This document shows, piece by piece, positions 1 to 9,570 of a DNA stretch of 64,000 nucleotides. Every line of letters starts with the position of its first letter. Position 1 is the stretch's first letter. The DNA is from Paracoccus sp. (in: a-proteobacteria). Lineage in GTDB: Bacteria > Pseudomonadota > Alphaproteobacteria > Rhodobacterales > Rhodobacteraceae. Below the pieces are notes generated by a model that saw only the letters and a list, made by a program, of their open reading frames with translations, was not told the origin of the DNA and searched no databases. A program made the translations under genes and the position numbers. The stretch spans positions 1 through 64,000 of the forward strand of contig NZ_JAUNTJ010000005.1 in assembly GCF_030538755.1 (NCBI RefSeq), in the 5' to 3' direction.

Positions 1-212
1 GCGTCGGGAAATATAAAAAGATCGCCGTGGGCGAGGAGTTCGTGATCGAATGTGGGGCATCAAAATTTATTATGCGAAATGACGGCAGCGTCATTATCCT
101 TGGGACAAATTTCAACTTCACCGCATCTGGGCCTGTTCAGATCAACGGCAGCGTGGTTGACCTGAACAAACCAGCATCAGCGCCTGCTCCAGAGCCAGAA
201 GATGCATCATGA
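1..212 (+). CDS. vgrG: VgrG C-terminal end (partial, 5' end outside window)
   Basis: The frame is open from the window edge (first complete codon at base 3) and ends at TGA 210-212. The roughly 70 visible residues are a short beta-rich repeat (EEFVIECGASKFIMRNDGSV, then IILGTNFNFTASGPVQINGS). This is the pattern of the C-terminal DUF2345-type tail of VgrG, the trimeric spike of the type VI secretion system. In this family the tail stacks onto a PAAR-type tip, and the next genes (DUF2169, DUF4150) supply such a tip. A GTG at 27 is internal, not the start. The tail ends in a short Pro/Ala-rich stretch. The stop overlaps the next ATG in an ATGA junction, suggesting translational coupling. The call rests on a short fragment plus its neighbours. 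Confidence 0.75.
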   Translation, partial: VGKYKKIAVGEEFVIECGASKFIMRNDGSVIILGTNFNFTASGPVQINGSVVDLNKPASAPAPEPEDAS

Positions 213-841
213 CCCCCTCTCTTAAATTCACACTCTCAGCACTACATCATATTTCAACAGGGCATCTATCCGCAGGCAAGCGGCACAAGGTATTTGGTGA
301 AACTATAAATTTAACCATGCCGCCGGATATAATAAAAAGCACAGCAGGCAGGGTTTTCACTGTAATTACACTTATTATGCACCTTTACCCTGCCATAACC
401 AGAGCGCAGTCCATCAATGAGACTCAGCCCACTTCCATCAAAAGACTTATCACTAAAATTTCCAAGATAACAGGGATCGACCCCGTCAAAACAGAGCATC
501 TGCTGAGCGCAACCTTCCTGCGACAGGACGAAATGCGGGCCTACGAACAACTCCGCACAATTCCATCCAGATTCGTAGAATTAAATATGGCAAGTATTGA
601 TCTGTCACGCCCTATTAAGGAAGGGGCGGCCACAACCGGGCCCAGCTTACGCATCTTGCTCTCGAACACCCAATTTGCCGCAAGACCGAAAGACATTCTC
701 GGCATCCACTCAGAAGCCACGTTATTTTCACCACCGCATCCAAATGACGCTCAGAAAATGACCGTCTGGCTGGTCGAGGCAACTCCAGAACTGGGATTTT
801 TCGGCACCCGCGCAGATTGCTTAAGCGGCGTCACATTATAA
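209..841 (+). CDS. Hypothetical protein of the T6SS effector operon
   Basis: This is a 210-residue protein I do not recognise. It overlaps the vgrG stop by 4 bases (ATGA), so it is almost certainly co-translated with vgrG, and it precedes the DUF2169 gene by 25 bases. A hydrophobic stretch lies around residues 45-65 (RVFTVITLIMHLYPAITRAQ). It may be an internal membrane segment, or a signal-like segment if translation starts later. The rest is soluble-looking, with a basic helical part (SIKRLITKISKITG) and no catalytic motif I can name. Position suggests a spike-associated adaptor or small effector, but nothing in the sequence proves it. Base composition is AT-richer than the housekeeping part of the window. 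Confidence 0.7.
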   Translation: MTPSLKFTLSALHHISTGHLSAGKRHKVFGETINLTMPPDIIKSTAGRVFTVITLIMHLYPAITRAQSINETQPTSIKRLITKISKITGIDPVKTEHLLSATFLRQDEMRAYEQLRTIPSRFVELNMASIDLSRPIKEGAATTGPSLRILLSNTQFAARPKDILGIHSEATLFSPPHPNDAQKMTVWLVEATPELGFFGTRADCLSGVTL

Positions 842-866: not shown

Positions 867-1919
867 ATGTCACCCGTAAATCACACCCCCTTCCCGGCCA
901 TTGCATTTCGGCAGTATAATTTAGCCGGAAAAATGATGGGTGTTGTTGCGATGCGCGGCACATTCTTTCTGACGAGAGGCGGCCCTTTAACATTAGCCCG
1001 CGATCAGGCACCGCTTTGTTTTTCGGACACCTATGACGGCATCGACCCACACGCATCACAACTCGTTACACAAAGCGATCTGACCCCATTCAAACCCGCA
1101 ACAGATATTACATTTCTCGGAAGCTCATACACAGAAACGGGGAGAATTCAGCCAAGCTGGATATGCGGCCTGACAGTTGGCAATATAGAAAAGAATCTCC
1201 GCGTCCACGGCCCAAGGTCTTGGGTCAAGAAACGAACTCGGTCGGGAATTTTGCGCCGCGCATCAAATGAATGGGAGTTAACAGAGCCTGAATCTGTTAA
1301 TCATGTTCCACTCGGATGGGACAGGGCTTATGGTGGAAGCATTCCGGCGCCTGATAACGCACAGACGCAACCCTATGAGAAAAACCCTATCGGCTGCGGC
1401 ATTGCACCAGATATGGACACGGATAACTTTCCTGCACCGCAGATCGAGGCACCCGATGACCCGATCACAGATTGGCAAAAGTGCTACGAACCGCAAGGCT
1501 TAGGCCCAATTCCGCCGTTTTGGGAACAGCGATTAAAATATGCCGGAACTTATGACGAGGCATGGCAATCAAGACGCCATCCCTTGCTGCCAGAGGATTT
1601 TAACTTCAGGTTCTGGCAATGTGCCCATCCCGACTTGATCGCAGATGGCTGGCTAAAGGGCAACGAACATTTTGAATTAAGAAATCTGTTGCGGGGCTAT
1701 CCGACTTTTCAAGGGTGCCTGCCTGATATTCAGATGGAGATCCACTTACCTCGCCCCGAGGGCAAAGGCATAGCACCCTTTGTCTTGGACGGTGTGCATT
1801 TCGATATGCGCCCCGGCGTTGGCCGTGTCTTTCTAACGTGGCGCGCCGGGTTTCCGTGGCATGACGGACGAGGACAACCTATCATCGTCGCACGAAATCC
1901 AATCCCGGAGGGGGTATAA
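867..1919 (+). CDS. DUF2169 domain protein, T6SS effector accessory
   Basis: The 350-residue protein fits the DUF2169 family along its length: N-terminal FPAIAFRQYNLAGKMMGVVA and MRGTFFL, central VHGPRSWVKK, then VPLGWDRAYGG, and a C-terminal RVFLTWRAGFPW. DUF2169 proteins are commonly encoded beside VgrG and PAAR/DUF4150 effectors and are thought to help load the effector on the spike; the exact mechanism is not settled. Its stop (TAA 1917-1919) overlaps the effector's ATG in a TAATG junction, so the two are probably translationally coupled. The gene shows no damage. Family membership is firm; the adaptor role is inferred from context. Confidence 0.88.
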   Translation: MSPVNHTPFPAIAFRQYNLAGKMMGVVAMRGTFFLTRGGPLTLARDQAPLCFSDTYDGIDPHASQLVTQSDLTPFKPATDITFLGSSYTETGRIQPSWICGLTVGNIEKNLRVHGPRSWVKKRTRSGILRRASNEWELTEPESVNHVPLGWDRAYGGSIPAPDNAQTQPYEKNPIGCGIAPDMDTDNFPAPQIEAPDDPITDWQKCYEPQGLGPIPPFWEQRLKYAGTYDEAWQSRRHPLLPEDFNFRFWQCAHPDLIADGWLKGNEHFELRNLLRGYPTFQGCLPDIQMEIHLPRPEGKGIAPFVLDGVHFDMRPGVGRVFLTWRAGFPWHDGRGQPIIVARNPIPEGV

Positions 1920-3493
1920 TGGGACAGGATTTTAACTCCCCCGAAAACCCTGATATATTCGTGCTGCCGACAATTTATATTACGGCGGGCATTGACATTA
2001 CCGACCTTCCCGAAACAGCCGCAGCTTTGCGCCGCGCCGGCCTGCCAGCGGATGGAACGGTAATCTATCATAAAAACTCTGAGGAATTCACTTTTCATCA
2101 CGATATAGACGACGAAGGGCAGCAGTTCACAGACCCTGAACTTCTGGATGCCGCGATAAAGGCGCATGGCCCACCACCCCCGACTGCCCCAAATCCGCCG
2201 CCACCCGAGGTCATCCCCGATACGGCTGCCGCGATCGCGGTTTCGACATCGCCGGATGTGTGCCGTGCGCCGCGTCGGCCCTGTCCTTTCCCGGTCTATG
2301 GCCGGGCGAATGACGATCAGAATTATGCCAGTACCGTGCGATCTAACGGCCAGACCCTGATGACATGGGGCAGCCGCTTCACCACGACCTATGGTGACGA
2401 GGCGGGAACCGGCGGCGGTGTCATTTCGGGGACACGGGGCAGCATCGTTGCCCCGACCAGCCACTCCCCGCTGGTCTTTGCCGAAGGCCAGCCGTTGATC
2501 CGCCACCGCGACAGTTGCACCCTGAACTCTGGCAATTGTCCGGGTGAGTTCATTCACGTTGATTCAACGGCGACCCATCCGGCACCGGATGGGCGGGATC
2601 AGGCGCAAAAAAGCCGTTTGGATTCATTCAGAGACGGGTTTATGGGCGCCTCGGGGACGGCCCAGACAGGCGCTTCGATTCTGGACAAGGCGGGGGAATA
2701 TTGGGATGATCCGTCACAGATCGGGCGCGATGCGCAGGGTCTGTGGGACGCGCGGCCAAGCTGGAGCGATATTCAGGACGGCGCGCAGAATATCGCCTCG
2801 GGCGCGGCGGCGGTCGGGCGGCAGGTGGTCGACGACCCCCGCGGCTCGGCCGGGGCTGTATGGAACTGGGGTGCAGAAGGGCTTTCCGACGCGTGGAACG
2901 GGGTTGAAGGAGCGTGGGAAGACAATGGCTTGGCCGGTGCTGCCGGTGTTGTGGCCGGGCTTGGAGTTGACCTTATCAATCCGTTCCGCAAGGCAAAAGC
3001 GGCAGGAGAGGCCGCCGACGCCTTGGGAGACATCGGCGATGCCACCCGCGCAGGCGGGGCCACCAGGCGGCGGCGCAGGGATGAGGTTCGGGAGGAAGAG
3101 GATGGTAGGGATGGGGCGAGGAGTACGCGCCGGATCAGCTTGCGTGAGCAATATCTTGGACGCACACCGGGTAAAAACTCTCGAACCGGTCGAGAAGTTC
3201 GAGAAAGAATGCGGCAAGAGGGCACACTTAGAACTGACCGTCATGGAAGGGATGAGTTCTTGGGCGAGGATAATAGATGGTATCCTGTCGACAGCCCACA
3301 GACACATATGGGCCATCATCCGGTTGACGCAGTTGACTATTGGAACGAAACAGGGCGATTCCACGGTGCAAAATCACGAGAAGTGCGCGACTGGATGCTG
3401 GATTCAAGTAACTATAGATTTGAGTACGGACCTTTAAATTCAGCAAGAGGCGGCTCTACGAGCGCCAGATACCTTCCACCAGTAGAAAGATAG
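1919..3493 (+). CDS. PAAR-like (DUF4150) T6SS effector with HNH/Endo VII-type C-terminal toxin
   Basis: The protein has 524 residues. Residues 1-105 are an N-terminal extension ending in a Pro-rich hinge. Residues about 110-225 are a DUF4150 PAAR-like domain with Cys at PDVCRAPRRPCPFPVYG and a CTLNSGNCPG turn. Residues about 260-400 are a linker with a hydrophobic GAAGVVAGLGVDL helix and an Arg/Glu-rich low-complexity run. Residues about 404-524 form the toxin. The toxin has THMGHHPVDAVDYWN followed by NYRFEYGPLNSARGG. That His/Glu/Asn pattern resembles HNH/Endo VII superfamily toxins related to GH-E, so it probably cuts nucleic acid. Linker bases 2697-3127 recur three times downstream as heads of orphan cassettes. 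The immunity gene follows 6 bases after the stop. The toxin family name is tentative; the delivery role is well supported. Confidence 0.85.
   Translation: MGQDFNSPENPDIFVLPTIYITAGIDITDLPETAAALRRAGLPADGTVIYHKNSEEFTFHHDIDDEGQQFTDPELLDAAIKAHGPPPPTAPNPPPPEVIPDTAAAIAVSTSPDVCRAPRRPCPFPVYGRANDDQNYASTVRSNGQTLMTWGSRFTTTYGDEAGTGGGVISGTRGSIVAPTSHSPLVFAEGQPLIRHRDSCTLNSGNCPGEFIHVDSTATHPAPDGRDQAQKSRLDSFRDGFMGASGTAQTGASILDKAGEYWDDPSQIGRDAQGLWDARPSWSDIQDGAQNIASGAAAVGRQVVDDPRGSAGAVWNWGAEGLSDAWNGVEGAWEDNGLAGAAGVVAGLGVDLINPFRKAKAAGEAADALGDIGDATRAGGATRRRRRDEVREEEDGRDGARSTRRISLREQYLGRTPGKNSRTGREVRERMRQEGTLRTDRHGRDEFLGEDNRWYPVDSPQTHMGHHPVDAVDYWNETGRFHGAKSREVRDWMLDSSNYRFEYGPLNSARGGSTSARYLPPVER
2697..3127 (+). repeat. 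Anchor repeat copy 1 (inside the expressed effector)
   Basis: This is the pre-toxin linker of the full-length effector, from EYWDDPSQIG to the codons for DGARST. It recurs almost unchanged at 4465-4719, 5940-6371 and 7789-7998, always in frame with a different downstream toxin or toxin allele. Copies 1 and 3 share the full 430 bases, while copies 2 and 4 keep only the 3' 255 and 210 bases. It could serve as the homology arm for toxin replacement. Confidence 0.9.
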
Positions 3494-3499
3494 GACACG

Positions 3500-4378
3500 A
3501 TGAACAGAAAACCTGAGATACCCGAACCCACAAAAAGCGAGATTGACGAAATTCTAGCCGCCTCCGGCGATGCCTTTAGAGAAGGAGACCTTAGAAAATC
3601 ACATGAGATCGCGCTAATGGCATGGGATCTCATTCCAGAACCCAAAGAGCAATGGGACTACTACCCCCAAAGCCTTTCCCGAAGCTTCGTCGAAGATTTC
3701 GCCAAATTCGGAGATGAAAAAAATACCCATAAATGGGTGGAAGTCATGGCCCATATGTACAACGATCCAAATCATGAGGATCATTATGTTTTGAGCACAG
3801 AAGCATGGGCAATGATGGAACTTGGGAACAAAGAGCGTGCCCACTATGTCATTGGGAGAATTTTAGAGATATATGGGGAAAAGGGCTTCTCCGGACCCGA
3901 ACAAACCTCATGGCTTGATCTTTATAAAAAGGGAGAATGGCATCACAATGCCAGCGAACTTCCCGACAGAACACACGAAGAAATCGAACGACTTTCGGAA
4001 CTTGGAAATATTGAAATGGATGCAGGAAACGCAGATCGCGCCATTGCCTACTGGCGCGACGCTCTCGATCTGCTTCCCCAACCAGCCCACACATGGGAAG
4101 CCGCGCTTTGGCTATATGCGTCCATTGGGGATGCCCAAAGAGAGTTAGGTTTGCTAGAGGAAGCTCTCTCATCCTTCCGTTCAGCAGAAATATCGGATGA
4201 CGGCTACGCACATCCATTTGTCCAAATCGGCCTTGGCATGACTTTATACGACCTCGGACAGAAGGATGCAGCAACCGAACACTTGCTTCGCGCCTATATG
4301 GCAGAGGGCGCAGACATATTTCACCCAAATGGAGGCAAGTATCTCCAGCACCTCGCGGACAAAAATCTATTAAACTGA
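3500..4378 (+). CDS. TPR-like immunity protein for the expressed toxin
   Basis: This 292-residue, probably cytoplasmic, alpha-helical protein has no signal peptide. Residues 1-155 are one helical repeat module (EGDLRKSHEIALMAWDLIP; YVIGRILEIYGE). Residues 160-292 are a second, clearly TPR-like module (GNADRAIAYWRDALDLLP; GLLEEALSSFRSAE; GQKDAATEHLLRAY). It lies 6 bases after the effector stop, which is the usual place for the cognate immunity gene. The second half is almost base-for-base the same as 8819-9259, and the first half is a diverged allele of 8371-8829. Immunity function is inferred from position and from the same pairing being repeated downstream. Confidence 0.8.
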   Translation: MNRKPEIPEPTKSEIDEILAASGDAFREGDLRKSHEIALMAWDLIPEPKEQWDYYPQSLSRSFVEDFAKFGDEKNTHKWVEVMAHMYNDPNHEDHYVLSTEAWAMMELGNKERAHYVIGRILEIYGEKGFSGPEQTSWLDLYKKGEWHHNASELPDRTHEEIERLSELGNIEMDAGNADRAIAYWRDALDLLPQPAHTWEAALWLYASIGDAQRELGLLEEALSSFRSAEISDDGYAHPFVQIGLGMTLYDLGQKDAATEHLLRAYMAEGADIFHPNGGKYLQHLADKNLLN

Positions 4379-4464
4379 AACAAATAAGATATAAATCTAA
4401 CTACTCCACACGGCCAACGAAATCGTGACCCGATGAGTGGCGTTTAACGAAACTCCATATCCGC

Positions 4465-4719
4465 GTTGAAGGGCTTTCCGACGCGTGGAACGGGGTCGAA
4501 AGCGCGTGGGAAACCAATGGCTTGGTCGGTGCTGCCGGTGTTGTGGCCGGGCTTGGGGTTGACCTTATCAATCCGTTCCGCAAGGCAAAAGCGGCAGGAG
4601 AGGCCGCCGACGCCCTGGGAGACATCGGCGATGCCACCCGCGCAGGCGGGACCACCAGGCGGCGGCGCAGGGATGAGGATCGGGAGGAAGAGGATGGCAG
4701 GGATGGGGCGAGAAGCACC
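4465..4719 (+). repeat. Anchor repeat copy 2
   Basis: This copy corresponds to about 2871-3127 of the expressed effector, from VEGLSDAWNGV to DGARST. It begins 86 bases after the first immunity gene. The upstream bases are unrelated and contain an in-frame TGA at 4426-4428, with no ATG between that stop and the toxin. Confidence 0.88.
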
Positions 4720-5223
4720 GGGCGGGTGCTTCGGGTGCGCTGTTTCGATATGCCGCCGGGGCTTGATGCGGTAGAATATGACCGGCAATTGGCGGAACGG
4801 ATGAGCGTTATTAACAACATGACCGCCGATGACATGGGATATGCGCATTGGGTCTTGAACCGGATGCGGGAAGAGGGGCTGACGACGGATGCGTTAAGGG
4901 ATAAAACGGCGCAGAGCAGGCATCGGAAAGACTACAGACGACATCTGCAGGATAAAGAAGGAATATCTCGTTCCAAAGCACGAAGCCGCATGCGAGGGCT
5001 ACATGCAACTCATTTCCTTGACATGGTTGCCGGCGGCGATCCACGGTATTTTTCGCATGATGCGCAAGGTAATCCTGTTTTGGGTGGCGGTCCAGAAAAT
5101 TCGCATATCGGCAACCAGTGGACACACGGTGGTCGCGCCGATTCCCTTGGGCAGGAAGCAGAAAGAATGCGTAGATCAGGACGTGCTGGTGAAAAAATGC
5201 AAGTTGAACTGAGGAGGTGCTAA
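4465..5223 (+). pseudogene. Orphan toxin cassette: Ntox15-type DNase C-terminus without its own start
   Basis: The frame is open from 4429 to TAA 5221-5223. It starts with anchor copy 2 and has no ATG; TTG 4522 is the earliest usable start and would leave a toxin with no delivery domain. After DGARST comes a 170-residue toxin: RCFDMPPGLDAVEYDRQLAE, MSVINNMTADDMGYAHWVL, then GLHATHFLDMVAGG (an HxxD motif, HFLD) and SHIGNQW. This matches Ntox15, the DNase domain of Agrobacterium Tde effectors. The next gene is a GAD-like/DUF1851 protein, the known immunity type for that family, which strengthens the call. It looks like a silent module that would be expressed only after recombination into the effector at 1919-3493, not like decay, because the toxin part is intact. 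Confidence 0.82.
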
Positions 5224-5227
5224 AAAC

Positions 5228-5929
5228 ATGTCGGATGATCTTTTCGAACGCTGGCCAGACATCGCTGATACTTTCGAGCACGATGGCCCCGTTGAGCATA
5301 TGCGTAACGCTACACCGGATGAGCTTCGTGATCTAGAGAAGATACTGCCAGCCTCACTTTATGAGCTGATCCGAGACAAAGGCTATTGTCGTTTCCACGG
5401 CGGCAGCTTTACCATGGTCAACCCCATCGAAATGCGCCCCGTATCCGCGCAGATATTTGGTGCCGATCCTGATCTTGATCATCGCACCTGCCATATGATT
5501 GGCTATTCCGCATTTGGCGACTGTTATTTCTGGTCTGATCAACTCCACGATTTCAATGTGGAAATGGCTTTGGGCAGAGTATTCAGTCGAAGATTAACAC
5601 GGCCAGAGCAGACCCTTAACCCAAAAGTTTCACCTGCTCAACTTGCGTCGGGCATGATCCCACATCGCGATTCTTACGAATTTTACGATTACCTCGACCA
5701 GCCGATGCTCGACCGCTGCATCGAAGCCTACGGCATGCCCGCCCCCGGCGAAATCTATGGCTTTGTGCCCGCACTTAGCATTGCCGGGGTGGGTTCCATT
5801 TTCCAACGCGTCGAAAATATCAAACGCGTTTCCGCCCCGGAACATCTGTCGATCCTTGCCCAAATGGGCGACCGCTACCTGATGCGCCTCGTCCCCGGCG
5901 GTATTCAGCCCGTCCGAAAAATTGGTTAG
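5228..5929 (+). CDS. GAD-like / DUF1851 immunity protein for Ntox15 DNase (Tdi-type)
   Basis: The protein has 233 residues. The N-terminal 100 or so (HMRNATPDELRDLEKILPAS, LYELIRDKGYCRF, GGSFTMVNP) fit the GAD-like domain. The C-terminal part (MLDRCIEAYGMPAPGEIYGF, FVPALSIAGVGS, HLSILAQMGDRYLM) fits DUF1851. The same two-domain layout is known for Tdi immunity proteins that neutralise Tde/Ntox15 DNases, and an Ntox15 module lies directly upstream. A strong Shine-Dalgarno (GAGGAGG about 5210-5216) precedes ATG 5228. The immunity protein can therefore be made even though the toxin upstream has no start, which would protect the cell from kin that use this toxin. Confidence 0.85.
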   Translation: MSDDLFERWPDIADTFEHDGPVEHMRNATPDELRDLEKILPASLYELIRDKGYCRFHGGSFTMVNPIEMRPVSAQIFGADPDLDHRTCHMIGYSAFGDCYFWSDQLHDFNVEMALGRVFSRRLTRPEQTLNPKVSPAQLASGMIPHRDSYEFYDYLDQPMLDRCIEAYGMPAPGEIYGFVPALSIAGVGSIFQRVENIKRVSAPEHLSILAQMGDRYLMRLVPGGIQPVRKIG

Positions 5930-5939
5930 ATAATCTCGG

Positions 5940-6371
5940 GAATATTGGGATGATCCGTCACAGATCGGGCGCGATGCGCAGGGTCTGTGGGACGCGCGGC
6001 CAAGCTGGAGCGATATTCAGGACGGCGCGCAGAATATCGCCTCGGGCGCGGCGGCGGTCGGGCGGCAGGTGGTCGACGCCCCCCGCGGCTCGGTCGGGGC
6101 GGTATGGAACTGGGGTGCAGAAGGGCTTTCCGACGCGTGGAACGGGGTCGAAGGCGCGTGGGAAGACAATGGCTTAGCCGGTGCTGCCGGTGTTGTGGCC
6201 GGGCTTGGGGTTGACCTTCTCAATCCGTTCCGCAAGGCAAAAGCGGCAGGAGAGGCCGCCGACGCTCTGGGAGACATCGGCGATGCCACCCGCACAGGCG
6301 GGGCCACCAGGCGGCGGCGCAGGGGCGAGGATCGGGAGGAAGAGGATGGTAGGGATGGGGCGAGGAGTACG
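5940..6371 (+). repeat. Anchor repeat copy 3
   Basis: This is the longest silent copy. It matches 2697-3127 along its whole length with scattered substitutions (for example VDAPRGSVG instead of VDDPRGSAG). It begins about 10 bases after the previous immunity gene's stop, behind an in-frame TAA at 5931-5933, and ends at the DGARST codons. Confidence 0.9.
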
Positions 6372-6704
6372 AGAGAGAAGCCCTACAGAGATACAACTAG
6401 CCGGCCTAAATATGCACCAGGGCAAGTGGACTCCGTATGGGAAAATGCCAAGGATCGCCGCGGCAACGTTTATGACCCAAATACAGGCGAAAAATTAGAA
6501 TGGGATAGAAGCAGAAGCCGCTCGGGGCAGTGGGACATGGGACACAAGCCAGGACATGAGTATCGAAAACTGCACAAAGACTATATAGACGGGAAGATAT
6601 CAAAGGAAAAATCCCTTGACGAGTATCGGAACCCCAAAAACTATCAGCCAGAAAGCGTATCTGGAATAGAAGCCATCGATTCGAAGAGGAATGACTATGA
6701 CTGA
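5940..6704 (+). pseudogene. Orphan toxin cassette: GH-E family nuclease, frameshifted at the catalytic C-terminus
   Basis: Anchor copy 3 is followed by a GH-E-type (HNH/Endo VII superfamily) nuclease: VWENAKDRRGNVYDPNTGE, QWDMGHKPGHEYRKLH and NPKNYQPESVSG. The family continues with an N-R-S-H...E segment. Here the frame instead reads IEAIDSKRNDYD and stops at 6704. Adding one A near 6664-6667 restores NRSHRFEEE followed by TGA just before the next gene's start region. The cassette is therefore doubly silent: it has no start codon and the last catalytic motif is out of frame, unless the lost base is a sequencing error. The ankyrin immunity gene overlaps its end. Confidence 0.85.
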
Positions 6705-7149
6705 CTGGTTCCAAGAGATTAGAACGAACAAATCTTTAAACCTACAAGGTATAAAAAACCCAAGCCAAATCAGTGATGACAACCATACACTCCTTCAAGA
6801 AGCAATTGTATGGGCACCTCAATATGCAATAGCACTCATGGAACTCGGCACCCCGCTCGACCATCAGGACAACAATGGCCAGACAGCATTGCAGTATGCA
6901 ATTTCCAGGGACTACGAGGACATAGCCACAGCTATTATACAGTCCGGTGGAGATGTCAACATCTCTGATAGATACGGAAATGCAGCACTTTGGACAGCCG
7001 TCATGCAGCCAAACCCAAATTATAATATTATTAAATCCATTTTACATCACGGAGGCGACGCCTCAAAAGTAAATACCTCGGGGAAAACCCCAATAATTAT
7101 GGCAAAAATCAAAGGGGACGAGGAAATGATACAAATACTCAACGGATGA
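6691..7149 (+). CDS. Ankyrin-repeat immunity protein (for GH-E toxin)
   Basis: The 152-residue protein contains about three ankyrin repeats: HTLLQEAIVWAPQYAIALME, the consensus-like DNNGQTALQYAISRDYEDIA with GGDVNISDRYGNAALWTAV, and GGDASKVNTSGKTPIIMAK. It has no signal peptide and is probably cytoplasmic. The start is ATG 6691 or 6697. A GAAGAGGA stretch about 6681-6688 is a good ribosome site. The gene overlaps the end of the GH-E module, where cognate immunity genes sit, and ankyrin-type immunity proteins are known from polymorphic toxin loci. The pairing is inferred from position. The coding region looks intact although its partner toxin is broken. Confidence 0.75.
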   Translation: MTMTDWFQEIRTNKSLNLQGIKNPSQISDDNHTLLQEAIVWAPQYAIALMELGTPLDHQDNNGQTALQYAISRDYEDIATAIIQSGGDVNISDRYGNAALWTAVMQPNPNYNIIKSILHHGGDASKVNTSGKTPIIMAKIKGDEEMIQILNG

Positions 7150-7181
7150 ATTCTTAGTGCACACAAATTAAAAATTTCAGG

Positions 7182-7730
7182 ATGCGTGAGGAGCCTCCCA
7201 AATTAGCAGGAGGAATATTTACGGATCAAAGACTTAAACCCCCAAGGAAGCAAGCCGCGCCCATGGAACACTACCGCAGAGCAATATCACTACTGGAAAA
7301 GTGGGGGCGCTTGGATAGGCTCCAATCTCCGCAAACCAGTGATACAATAGATCTTTTAGAAGTTGCCCTCCAGGTTAAGCTCCCTCCATCCTACAGAGCT
7401 ATGCTTCAGGATTTTGGAATATTGATTTATCGAGGGGGTGAAATAATTTACGGCATCGGCCTTAACGGAGTAAAAGGAGAGGGCGGCTCTGGTGTCTGGT
7501 TTCAGACCGAAGTTGCACGCGCCCGTGGACAGATAAGCCAGACGATGGTGTGCATAATGAGTTCAGGATACGGACCGGAGTTCTGTATAGAATGTGCAGA
7601 ACGCCAGCCGAACGGAGAATCCCCTGTTTATCTGGTCCCCGCAGCTGGATATCCGGTCGGCCTTGAAAAGGTTGCGGATTCCTTTGGCGAGTTTTTGCTT
7701 AAGGAAGTTGAATTAAGCCTCGACGATTAA
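7182..7730 (+). CDS. SMI1/KNR4 (SUKH) family orphan immunity protein
   Basis: The C-terminal 150 residues carry SUKH features: SLLEKWGRL, a hallmark LPPSYRAMLQDFGILIYRGG, then FCIECAERQPNGESPVYLV and SFGEFLLKEVE. SUKH proteins are a large group of immunity proteins against diverse toxins. The start is uncertain: ATG 7182 gives 182 residues, while ATG 7263 (MEHYRRAISLLEKW) gives 155 and fits the domain better. No toxin module precedes it, because the upstream gene is itself an immunity gene. It is therefore an orphan immunity gene, either kept for protection or left behind after its toxin was exchanged. Confidence 0.75.
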   Translation: MREEPPKLAGGIFTDQRLKPPRKQAAPMEHYRRAISLLEKWGRLDRLQSPQTSDTIDLLEVALQVKLPPSYRAMLQDFGILIYRGGEIIYGIGLNGVKGEGGSGVWFQTEVARARGQISQTMVCIMSSGYGPEFCIECAERQPNGESPVYLVPAAGYPVGLEKVADSFGEFLLKEVELSLDD

Positions 7731-7788
7731 CATCTCAAAGAGGCCAAACCAACCCCACCACATATAGAGCTTCCACAAGGACTCGCAG

Positions 7789-7998
7789 GAAGACAATGGC
7801 TTAGCCGGTGCTGCCGGTGTTGTGGCCGGGCTTGGAGTTGACCTTCTCAATCCGTTCCGTAAGGCAAAAGCGGCAGGAGAGGCCGCCGACGCCTTGGGAG
7901 ACATCGGCGATGCCACCCGCGCAGGCGGGGCCACCAGGCGGCGGCGCAGGGATGAGGTTCGGGAGGAAGAGGATGGTAGGGATGGGGCGAGGAGTACG
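7789..7998 (+). repeat. Anchor repeat copy 4 (shortest)
   Basis: This copy matches 2918-3127 from EDNGLAGAAGVV to DGARST. It starts about 58 bases after the SUKH gene, behind an in-frame TAG at 7765-7767. Beyond its end, similarity to copy 1 continues into the same toxin family up to about 8122. Confidence 0.88.
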
Positions 7999-8364
7999 CG
8001 CCGGATCAGCTTGCGTGAGCAATATCTTGGACGCACACCGGGTAAAAACTCTCGAACCGGTCGAGAAGTTCGAGAAAGAATGCGGCAAGAGGGCACACTT
8101 AGAACTGACCGTCATGGAAGGGACCAATTTTTAGATGAGACCGGCACATGGCGATTTGTCGACTCCAGCGACACCCACATGGGCCATCATCCGGTTGACG
8201 CGGTTGACTATTGGAACGAAACAGGGCGATTTTACGGTGCAAAATCAAGAGAGGTTCGTGCCTGGATGTTGGATTCAAACAACTATAGGTTCGAGTATGG
8301 ACCTTTGAATTCAGCAAGGGGTGGCGCCACAAGTTCCAGATACCTTCCACCAGTAGAAAGATAG
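7789..8364 (+). pseudogene. Orphan toxin cassette: second allele of the HNH/Endo VII-type toxin
   Basis: Anchor copy 4 is followed by the same toxin type as the expressed effector. The segment LREQYLGRTPGKNSRTGREV through RTDRHGRD is identical. Residues then diverge (QFLDETGTWRFVDSSDTHMG instead of EFLGEDNRWYPVDSPQTHMG) before converging on HHPVDAVDYWNETGRF and NYRFEYGPLNSARGG. The toxin part is intact to TAG 8362-8364, but there is no delivery domain. TTG and GTG codons in the anchor could start a toxin-only protein. It is followed 6 bases later by a TPR-like immunity gene, the same order as at 1919-4378. It appears to be a duplicated, partly diverged toxin/immunity pair. Confidence 0.82.
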
Positions 8365-8370
8365 GACAAG

Positions 8371-8829
8371 ATGAACAGAAAACCTGAGATACCCGAACCT
8401 ATAAAAAGCAAGATTGACGAGATTTTAGCAGCATCCAGCGACGCCTTTAGAGAGGGAGACCTTAGAAAATCACATGAGATCGCGCTAATGGCATGGGATC
8501 TCATTCCAGAACCTAAAGAGCGATGGGACTACTACCCCCAAAGCCTATCAAGAAGCTTTGTTGAAGACTACATAAATTTCCGGGACGAGGCTGCCGCAAC
8601 AAAATGGGTAGAGATTACGGCAATTATGTTCAACGATCCAAATCACGAAGACCTTGAAGTATTAACCATAGAGGCTGAGGTAACATCTTCATTTGGCAAC
8701 ACCGAAAGGCTCCTATACATTATCAACAGGATAGTGGAGATATATGGGGAGCAGCCCCTTCGAGCACCAGAGCGCCAAAAGTGGCTGAAAATTTATCAAA
8801 GCGAAAAAGGGAAGTTTAATGCCCGGTGA
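8371..8829 (+). CDS. TPR-like immunity protein, N-terminal half (split gene, allele 2)
   Basis: The 152-residue protein matches residues 1-155 of the immunity protein at 3500-4378. The first 70 residues are nearly identical (EGDLRKSHEIALMAWDLIP) and the next 80 are diverged (DEAAATKWVEITAIMFNDPN, LLYIINRIVEIYGE). It ends at TGA 8827-8829. There the sequence has one extra base relative to allele 1 (GCCCGGTGACCTTCCC against GCCAGCGAACTTCCC), which breaks the long protein in two. The remainder restarts at ATG 8819 with an 11-base overlap, so both halves may still be made by coupled translation. The variable middle part tracks the variable part of the adjacent toxin, suggesting that this half sets specificity. 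Confidence 0.72.
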   Translation: MNRKPEIPEPIKSKIDEILAASSDAFREGDLRKSHEIALMAWDLIPEPKERWDYYPQSLSRSFVEDYINFRDEAAATKWVEITAIMFNDPNHEDLEVLTIEAEVTSSFGNTERLLYIINRIVEIYGEQPLRAPERQKWLKIYQSEKGKFNAR

Positions 8830-9259
8830 CCTTCCCGAAAAAATATACGAAGAAATCGAACGGCTTTCGGAACTTGGAAATATTGAAATGGATGCAGGAA
8901 ACGCAGATCGCGCCATTGCCTACTGGCGCGACGCTCTCGATCTGCTTCCCCAACCAGCCCACACATGGGAAGCCGCGCTTTGGCTATATGCGTCCATTGG
9001 GGATGCCCAAAGAGAGTTAGGTTTGCTAGAGGAAGCTCTCTCATCCTTCCGTTCAGCAGAAATATCGGATGACGGCTACGCACATCCATTTGTCCAAATC
9101 GGCCTTGGCATGACTTTATACGACCTCGGACAGAAGGATGCAGCAACCGAACACTTGCTTCGCGCCTATATGGCAGAGGGCGCAGACATATTTCACCCAA
9201 ATGGAGGTAAGTATCTCCAGCACCTCGCGGACAAAAATCTATTAAACCGAAACAAATAA
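8819..9259 (+). CDS. TPR-like immunity protein, C-terminal half (split gene, allele 2)
   Basis: The 146-residue protein is almost identical to residues 160-292 of the immunity protein at 3500-4378 (ELGNIEMDAGNADRAIAYW; GLLEEALSSFRSAEISDDG; HPNGGKYLQHLADKNLLN) and has two extra C-terminal residues. ATG 8819 overlaps the end of the N-terminal half by 11 bases. The near identity over 440 bases, against a diverged first half, points to recent duplication or gene conversion of this 3' part. It may act as a separate subunit or be an inert remnant. The downstream bases to about 9269 also match allele 1 and stop at the insertion element. Confidence 0.72.
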   Translation: MPGDLPEKIYEEIERLSELGNIEMDAGNADRAIAYWRDALDLLPQPAHTWEAALWLYASIGDAQRELGLLEEALSSFRSAEISDDGYAHPFVQIGLGMTLYDLGQKDAATEHLLRAYMAEGADIFHPNGGKYLQHLADKNLLNRNK

Positions 9260-9270
9260 GATATAAATCC

Positions 9271-9570
9271 AGGTCATGTTGACAAATGGCGGAGCCAGAG
9301 GCGGATGGAAGAGATGTCGATGAAGGCCAGGAAGCTTTCTGCTGTCTTGTCGTAGCGGGTAGCGACGCGGCGGGCATTCTTGAGCTTGTTGAAGCACCTT
9401 TCGACGAGGTTCCGCAGCCGGTAGAGGGTGCGGTCCACGGCGATGCGCAGCCTGCGGGACTTGTGCATCGGGATCACCGGGACGACGTTACGCACCTCCA
9501 TTGTTTTGCGGACCTTGTCGGAGTCATAGCCTCTATCCGCCTGTGGCTCCGCCATTTGTCAACATGACCT
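9271..9570 (-). mobile_element. Miniature IS5-type element with 36-bp inverted ends
   Basis: The two ends, AGGTCATGTTGACAAATGGC at 9271 and its reverse complement ending at 9570, match over 36 bases with one mismatch. Between them on the minus strand (9274-9555) is the C-terminal part of an IS5-family transposase: ADRGYDSDKVRK, then NLVERCFNKLKNARRVATRY and SFLAFIDISSIRLWL. The catalytic N-terminal half is missing, so the element cannot move on its own. Both inverted ends encode the same IRLWLRHLST tail, so the right end is an inverted copy of the transposase 3' end rather than a normal left end. No target duplication is visible. The element abuts the last bases of the duplicated immunity unit. 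Confidence 0.85.

What the first reader, a model, noticed from the sequence alone, without database searches (positions are those of the whole stretch)
1919..9269. A T6SS effector followed by three start-less toxin/immunity cassettes that share its pre-toxin segment
Seen: the linker of the DUF4150 effector (2697-3127) is repeated at 4465-4719, 5940-6371 and 7789-7998. Each copy ends at the same DGARST codons, is in frame with a different toxin or toxin allele, and is closed by its own immunity gene. None of the repeats has an upstream delivery domain or ATG. Known: orphan C-terminal modules feed rhs and cdiA genes by homologous recombination. Inference: this locus is an equivalent library for a PAAR-like (DUF4150) effector, with the anchor as the crossover arm and immunity genes kept expressed.
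Basis: partly seen in the sequence, partly recalled or inferred. Interest (0 to 1): 0.85.

Follow-up and report, generated by a model that had tools for sequence, protein, structure and literature searches.

The report
Spare toxin cassettes behind T6SS effector
A Paracoccus bacterium carries, behind one contact-delivered antibacterial toxin gene, three silent-looking spare toxin and antidote modules that share its connector sequence, and relatives show such modules being swapped in at exactly that connector's end.

Summary
The linker of a DUF2169/PAAR-like T6SS effector (1919-3493) recurs at 4465-4719, 5938-6371 and 7788-7998 (93-99% identical), always ending in DGARST. Each copy is in frame with a toxin (Ntox15, GH-E, or an allele of the effector's own weakly GH-E-like toxin), lacks an evident start, and is followed by immunity genes.

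Best reading: displaced effector C-termini, as known for Rhs, CdiA and MafB, here on a small non-Rhs PAAR-like effector. Effector and cassette 4 share flanks at dS about 0.02 but differ in toxin core and immA at dS about 1, a recombination mosaic.

Neorhizobium galegae VafX2 and HAMBI 540 share 8.9 kb ending 2 bp past GARST, then carry different toxins; both keep an ankyrin immunity gene. Rhizobium NXC24 and CB3060 also differ from GARST onward. GARST precedes five toxin types on three linker types; its codons vary synonymously.

Against: Paracoccus copies whose toxin is visible all carry one toxin type; a G132 remnant is decayed. Silence, immunity expression and switching are untested. Perfect 263 and 344 bp repeats leave room for assembly error. 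Arrays: 1 of 43 testable loci.

The parts
1..212 (+). C-terminal end of a VgrG spike gene, cut by the contig start
   Evidence: frame open at the 5' end; by eye it matches the end of the long vgrG-like frame of G132 (L038); the name VgrG is recalled, not searched
867..1919 (+). DUF2169 adaptor gene
   Evidence: PF09937 2.5e-85
1919..3493 (+). T6SS effector: PAAR-like domain (2240-2545), linker (2576-3127), GH-E-like toxin 'tox1' (3128-3493)
   Evidence: ATG with GGAGG 7 nt upstream
3113..3127 (+). GARST boundary codons of the effector
3500..4378 (+). TPR immunity gene of the effector (immA and immB fused in one 292-aa frame)
   Evidence: AGGA 4 nt upstream; protection not tested
4465..5223 (+). 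cassette 2: linker copy 4465-4719, Ntox15 toxin 4720-5223, no evident start signal
5228..5929 (+). cassette 2 immunity, GAD-like/Tdi1_C
   Evidence: AGGAGGTG 8 nt before the ATG; a GAD-like gene follows Ntox15 in 5 of 5 other genomes of the genus with an Ntox15 match (125 genomes searched)
5938..6704 (+). cassette 3: linker copy 5938-6371, GH-E nuclease toxin 6372-6704
   Evidence: 71% identical to the toxin of a DUF4150 effector in Neorhizobium galegae
6691..7149 (+). cassette 3 immunity, ankyrin repeats
   Evidence: the same GH-E/ankyrin pair in N. galegae
7182..7730 (+). SUKH (SMI1/KNR4) gene, probably an orphan or second immunity
   Evidence: toxin partner not identified
7788..8364 (+). 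cassette 4: linker copy 7788-7998, toxin allele 'tox4' 7999-8364
8371..8829 (+). cassette 4 immA
8819..9259 (+). cassette 4 immB (TPR), the 3' homology arm with about 3973-4397
9271..9570 (.). 300-bp element with 46-nt inverted ends that closes the array; transposase-like by eye, not searched

Best explanation
The locus is a vgrG-linked PAAR-like (DUF2169/DUF4150) T6SS effector of a Paracoccus, followed by three displaced C-terminal toxin/immunity modules. New modules enter behind the delivery half by recombination in the linker. The older module, with a piece of linker, toxin and immunity genes, is pushed downstream and loses its start. The end of the linker, the conserved GARST codons, is the fixed boundary that keeps any incoming toxin in frame. 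Shown: repeat anatomy, a recombination mosaic between effector and cassette 4 (as assembled), incompatible site patterns among linkers, and different toxins from GARST onward on near-identical backbones in related bacteria. Inferred: the insertion history, that the cassettes are translationally silent, that their immunity genes are expressed, and that crossover between linker copies can put a cassette toxin back on the effector.
For: (1) Four linker copies at 93-99% identity, against 65-69% to the same linker in two other Paracoccus. (2) All cassette toxin types occur fused to PAAR-like effectors elsewhere. (3) Effector vs cassette 4 dS: left arm 0.023 (111 codons), toxin core 0.94 (80), immA 1.14 (146), immB 0.022 (138). 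Mismatches 3/336, 171/681 and 3/423. (4) Linker sites 2932 and 2975 group cassettes 3+4; sites 2965, 3023 and 3087 group effector+cassette 4. (5) N. galegae VafX2 vs HAMBI 540: 91.9% over 8,903 bp ending 2 bp after GARST, then different toxins; an ankyrin immunity gene follows in both (91.7% over 447 bp). Rhizobium NXC24 vs CB3060: 98.4% over 2,649 bp ending 3 bp after GARST, then different toxins, homology resuming at the end of immB. (6) GARST before tox1, Ntox15, GH-E, LHH and a weakly GmrSD_C-like toxin (plus one unassigned) on three linker types, codons varying synonymously. (7) A GAD immunity followed by a linker piece starting at the same EY codon exists, decayed, in G132. (8) Linkers 66-68% GC, rest of the window 67.6%, toxins and immunities 43-54%. 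(9) VipB/TssC-type sheath genes on another contig of the genome.
Against: No toxin swap is seen within Paracoccus: window, G132 C191 and G020 (cut short) have the tox1 type, and a second G132 effector cannot be read past its contig end. The G132 cassette remnant is decayed. The array is seen in only 1 of 43 testable loci. Perfect repeats of 263 and 344 bp could let an assembler exchange the two toxin/immunity cores or misorder the array; no reads or second strain are available. Low GC is not special to the tips: the vgrG end, the 210-aa frame and DUF2169 are 48-52% too. The start criterion is weak, since DUF2169 also lacks an SD match. Promoter-like sites are not above shuffles (11 vs 8.2, sd 2.5).
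Confidence: 0.78

Rival explanations
1. Immunity bank (overlaps with the best explanation, so the odds do not add to one): the array arose by displacement, but only the immunity genes matter. Displaced toxins are baggage on the way to decay, and the array protects against kin that still use the old toxins, as proposed for Vibrio cholerae.
For: Immunity genes of the same types stand without a matching toxin hit in rhizobia: SUKH and ankyrin behind Ntox15-GAD in HAMBI 540, GAD plus TPR pair in R. beringeri, three GAD-like hits in R. leguminosarum Norway. The G132 cassette is decayed. imm2 has a strong Shine-Dalgarno.
Against: All three cassette toxin frames and linkers in the window are open and in frame. 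Linker differences from the effector copy show fewer amino-acid changes than neutral (12 of 28, pooled p about 4e-4; singly 0.04, 0.01 and 0.17, sharing one sequence), though donors could have supplied them.
Confidence: 0.45
2. Assembly artefact: a short-read metagenome assembly strung alleles from several strains into one contig.
For: The related genomes are titled metagenome assemblies. Repeats of 263 and 344 bp are perfect, and the genome is 86.8% complete in 50 contigs.
Against: Cassettes 2 and 3 have their own content; the longest exact run they share with the effector is 141 bp for cassette 3, and none of 60 bp or more for cassette 2 (runs between cassettes were not measured). The GAD-to-linker junction recurs in G132. 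The rhizobial records with the swaps are titled complete sequences, but they hold single modules, not arrays.
Confidence: 0.1
3. Plain tandem duplication of the effector 3' end with divergence.
For: Effector and cassette 4 are homologous through linker, toxin and both immunity genes.
Against: Cassettes 2 and 3 carry toxins of other families. dS jumps about 40-fold at sharp borders, which divergence of a duplicate does not give.
Confidence: 0.03

Closest known systems
Rhs displaced C-terminal tips / orphan rhs-CT-rhsI modules (Jackson 2009 PMC2935791; Koskiniemi 2014 PMC3967940)
   Same: Downstream fragments with varying lengths of core repeat, different toxins, mostly no start, own immunity genes and low-GC tips. 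In evolved Salmonella the authors give evidence that recombination over 522 bp at 95% identity fused an orphan toxin to the main gene (passages seen).
   Different: Here the carrier is a 524-aa PAAR-like effector without an Rhs family match, and the boundary is GARST instead of DPxGL. No fusion event has been observed.
MafB class 3 silent cassettes in Neisseria (PMC4287609)
   Same: mafB-CT fragments without start codon, followed by mafI immunity genes, sharing a short motif with the full gene (passages seen).
   Different: Different N-terminal domain and export route, described for Neisseria.
Orphan immunity arrays by effector displacement in Vibrio cholerae T6SS (Kirchberger 2017 PMC5361080)
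   Same: Serial displacement behind a T6SS effector, with immunity genes retained (passages seen).
   Different: There the immunity genes remain; here toxin frames and linker copies remain as well.
vgrG/tap2/DUF4150 effector loci of agrobacteria (PMC8546570)
   Same: DUF2169 adaptor plus DUF4150 effector with polymorphic C-terminus, recombination hot spots and orphan immunities (passages seen).
   Different: In the passages seen, neither a linker-repeat cassette array nor the GARST boundary is described.

Membership tests
PAAR-like (DUF4150/Tox-PAAR-like) specialised T6SS effector | N-terminal PAAR-like domain | tested here: met
   PF13665 5.3e-24, score 84.9, cut-off 31 bits
PAAR-like (DUF4150/Tox-PAAR-like) specialised T6SS effector | encoded beside vgrG and a DUF2169 adaptor, T6SS machine in the genome | tested here: met
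   DUF2169 2.5e-85, VipB/TssC-type sheath genes on G000:C22; the vgrG end was recognised by eye only
PAAR-like (DUF4150/Tox-PAAR-like) specialised T6SS effector | T6SS-dependent delivery and killing | not testable with these tools
   needs an experiment
orphan/displaced polymorphic-toxin C-terminal module | toxin fragment downstream of the full gene, in frame with a partial copy of its conserved region | tested here: met
orphan/displaced polymorphic-toxin C-terminal module | no translation start of its own | tested here: inconclusive
   no ATG and at most a 4-nt SD match before the boundary, but DUF2169 and SUKH also lack an SD match, so the sequence criterion is weak
orphan/displaced polymorphic-toxin C-terminal module | cognate immunity gene directly downstream | tested here: met
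   the pairings Ntox15-GAD, GH-E-ankyrin and tox1-TPR recur elsewhere; protection not tested
orphan/displaced polymorphic-toxin C-terminal module | recombination with the main gene | tested here: inconclusive
   mosaic within the window, subject to assembly; swaps at the boundary in relatives; no fusion seen in this species
Rhs effector | Rhs/YD repeats and DPxGL boundary | tested here: not met
   no Rhs family among the Pfam or NCBIfam matches of the 524-aa effector; the boundary is GARST; DPxGL looked for by eye only

The most novel reading that the evidence does not exclude
GARST is the exchange boundary of a whole class of small PAAR-like effectors shared by Paracoccus and Rhizobiaceae, the counterpart of DPxGL in Rhs and VENN in CdiA, possibly also a cleavage site. 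The Paracoccus array is a living reservoir whose linkers are kept alike by gene conversion, so that a single crossover changes the toxin and its immunity together.
Probability: 0.4. Interest if true: 0.68.

Novelty: new variant of a known kind. Interest (0 to 1): 0.52.

Why it matters
It carries the orphan-module principle of large Rhs and CdiA toxins over to compact PAAR-like effectors. It supplies a boundary motif by which such effectors can be split into delivery and toxin halves, and natural pairs with near-identical backbones (N. galegae VafX2 and HAMBI 540, Rhizobium NXC24 and CB3060) in which toxin exchange and retained immunity can be tested directly.

Tried and rejected
Plain duplication with divergence was rejected on the dS mosaic. 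GARST as a DNA-level recombination site was rejected because all five codons vary synonymously, so any constraint is on the protein.

Survey for more arrays. One search had 38 entries: 32 loci L049-L080 (20 of the 32 PF13665 places, the short frames and the window's own left out, and 12 places of the genus search), the window, and L018, L038, L040, L044, L045. Other, mostly weak or short, genus hits were not fetched or not tested. Seven entries were not testable (6 with under 25 aa after the PAAR domain; L040 because my coordinate fell in a wrong frame), so 31 were tested including the window. One search covered 14 loci; two (L091, L092) are the same places as L038 and L018, so 12 more. Only the window has linker copies without a delivery domain. 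L077 gave one weak 36% hit over 52 residues. The two tandem effectors of L082 hit each other beside their own PAAR domains. Several loci are short contigs, and repeats break assemblies, so absence is weak evidence.

First genome-contig scan empty; the second found G132 and G020 as Paracoccus metagenome assemblies. Class-level PF13665 search rang in 3 of 385 genomes including the own one. Order-level search around G646 empty (0 of 31). NCBIfam gave nothing over a cut-off for the ten window proteins. Promoter scan not above shuffles; terminator-like hits (19 vs 11.5, sd 3.0) include 8 from the repeated linker read on the minus strand. Structure prediction of the tox1 family never started because the machine was busy.

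Eight paper searches showed, in the listings and the passages I opened, no description of a start-less cassette array on a non-Rhs PAAR-like effector or of GARST as a boundary motif. Passages were seen for PMC8546570, PMC5361080, PMC10210955, PMC8263058, PMC3967940, PMC4287609, PMC2935791, PMC3482391, PMC10539506 and PMC10902643; for PMC13392607 the outline with abstract and start of the introduction; no paper was read whole. The six GARST hits were judged by title and abstract start. The held library lacks most subscription papers. DPxGL is named in a passage seen. VENN as the CdiA boundary, and the idea that GARST might be cleaved, come from recall and inference.
Full report
Setting. The window is the start of a 177.6-kb contig of a 3.0-Mb draft genome, 86.8% complete. 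Its relatives G132 and G020, in the same genus by the search, are titled Paracoccus metagenome assemblies. The contig begins in what looks by eye like the end of a vgrG gene, followed by a 210-aa frame, a DUF2169 adaptor, and the effector at 1919-3493. T6SS sheath genes are on another contig.

Observation. A linker between PAAR-like domain and toxin is repeated three times downstream. The copies start at different linker positions (equivalent to about 2694, 2877 and 2917) but all end at DGARST. The toxins behind are Ntox15, GH-E, and an allele of the effector's own toxin, whose GH-E match is below cut-off. Before the boundary no cassette toxin frame has an ATG or a start with more than a 4-nt Shine-Dalgarno match, while the effector has GGAGG and imm2 has AGGAGGTG; but DUF2169 and SUKH have no match either, so this criterion is weak. 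Linkers have genome-like GC (66-68%, rest of window 67.6%); toxins and immunities have 43-54%. The vgrG end, 210-aa frame and DUF2169 are 48-52% as well, so low GC is not special to the tips.

Origin of the cassettes. Among 103 loci held, the delivery backbone is closest to Paracoccus (DUF2169 67%, N-terminal part 79%). The cassette 2 and 3 contents are closer to plasmid genes, mostly rhizobial: Ntox15 47% vs 32%, GAD 45% vs 31%, GH-E 71% with no hit among the Rhodobacteraceae loci (matches over 60% of the query). GH-E was found in 1 of 125 genomes of the genus, the window's own. Ntox15 was found in 6 of 125 including the own one, and in the other five it stands next to a GAD-like gene. In N. 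galegae VafX2 the GH-E/ankyrin pair is attached to a DUF2169-DUF4150 effector, annotated there as two overlapping reading frames.

Recombination inside the window. Effector and cassette 4 are almost identical from 2917 to 3252 and from about 3973 to 4397, and strongly diverged between. Synonymous divergence is 0.023, 0.94, 1.14 and 0.022 for linker arm, toxin core, immA and immB. Selection on amino acids does not make such steps, so the toxin core and first immunity gene were exchanged between conserved arms. Five informative linker sites support two incompatible groupings, which means exchange among copies or repeated mutation. Differences from the effector linker are depleted in amino-acid changes (12 of 28 pooled, p about 4e-4; singly 0.04, 0.01, 0.17; the comparisons share one sequence), so they arose in functional genes or were rewritten from one. 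Caution: perfect repeats of 263 and 344 bp flank the exchanged core. A short-read assembly could have exchanged the two cores, although both alleles and both contexts would still exist.

A shared old junction. In G132 a GAD immunity end (61% over 44 aa) is followed by a linker piece that begins at the same EY codon as cassette 3. That piece is decayed. Its longest matches are to the G020 linker (172 bp at 76%, 51 bp at 82%); matches to the window effector (52 bp at 79%, 44 bp at 77%) and to G132's own effector (38 bp at 84%, 54 bp at 74%) are shorter. Cassette 3 is 97% identical to the window effector. Either the junction is inherited and the window copy was kept like its effector by conversion, or the same junction arose twice. 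This is suggestive only.

Swaps at GARST in relatives. N. galegae VafX2 and HAMBI 540 align at 91.9% over 8,903 bp that end 2 bp after the GARST codons. VafX2 continues with GH-E, HAMBI 540 with Ntox15, GAD and a SUKH-like gene, and the ankyrin immunity gene follows in both at 91.7%. Rhizobium NXC24 and CB3060 align at 98.4% over 2,649 bp up to 3 bp after GARST, then carry tox1-type and LHH toxins, and homology resumes at the end of immB. GARST stands before the toxin in the window (4 copies), G132, G020 and 10 rhizobial plasmid records; two of these share one protein, and in one, R. tumorigenes 1078 L083, it lies in another frame than the PAAR-like domain. It sits on three linker types and before five toxin types plus one unassigned; tox1 (weakly), GH-E and LHH belong to the HNH/ENDO VII superfamily, and the GmrSD_C match is weak. 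Its codons vary synonymously at all five positions. Outside these effectors the scan showed one exact GARST, in an unrelated frame of L061 (frames of 120 aa or more); a companion count gave about 1.02 million 5-mers in frames of 100 aa or more, effectors included. G140, G082 and Rhodobacteraceae S2214 have TGRVTR or TARVTR at the same place. The other DUF4150 effectors held showed no GARST.

What is not shown. No switch has been seen in Paracoccus: window, G132 C191 and G020 have the tox1 type, the G020 copy being cut after about 30 residues by unrelated sequence; a second G132 effector (C63) ends in its linker. No expression data exist. Arrays with linker copies were found in 1 of 43 testable loci (31 with the window, 12 more); what was left out is told under tried and rejected.

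Comparison with the known. Rhs tips in Serratia and E. coli (Jackson 2009, passages seen) show the same anatomy: repeats of varying length, different tips, mostly without starts. Koskiniemi 2014 (passages) gives evidence for fusion of an orphan over 522 bp of 95% identity in Salmonella; the linker arms here are 211-434 bp at 94-99%, or 336 bp for cassette 4 with the toxin start. MafB class 3 loci have start-less cassettes with immunity genes (passages). Zhang 2012 describes standalone cassettes as general (passages). Kirchberger 2017 describes serial displacement with retained immunity genes (passages). Hagan 2023 shows an orphan immunity protecting in Serratia (passages). The principle is therefore known. 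The carrier type, the GARST boundary and the rhizobial swap pairs appear new within the searches made.

Verdict. Real feature, correctly observed. It is a displaced-module array of a known kind on a new kind of carrier, with a boundary motif that generalises beyond the window.

Noticed in passing
window 3500-4378 vs 8371-9259: The effector's TPR immunity is one 292-aa frame, whereas cassette 4, G132, G140, G082, Rhizobium NXC24 and R. beringeri have two separate genes (immA, immB); the window gene looks like a fusion at the recombination border.
   Followed up: partly
window 209-841: A low-GC 210-aa frame without a Pfam match lies between the vgrG end and the DUF2169 adaptor; in G132 the adaptor follows the vgrG-like frame directly.
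   Followed up: no
window 9271-9570: A 300-bp element, transposase-like by eye, with 46-nt inverted ends (89% complementary) begins within a few bases of the end of the immB repeat and closes the array.
   Followed up: partly
L044, L085, L090, L094, L113: DUF4150 effectors or toxin frames without GARST show another short string before the toxin (VRI/VRV, in three of these five VR[IV]DED..RRC-like), perhaps the boundary motif of a second subclass; seen by eye.
   Followed up: no
L082 14001-25700 (Rhizobium beringeri): Two tandem DUF4150 effectors followed by a row of small genes including GAD-like and TPR immunity types, apparently an orphan immunity bank of the same types as in the window.
   Followed up: partly
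L039 (G132:C63) 7319-8043: A second PAAR-like effector in G132 whose contig ends in the linker just before the EY codon where cassette 3 begins.
   Followed up: partly
window 7182-7730: A SUKH gene between the ankyrin immunity and cassette 4; in N. galegae HAMBI 540 a SUKH-like gene likewise sits beside the ankyrin gene, so the two may travel together.
   Followed up: partly
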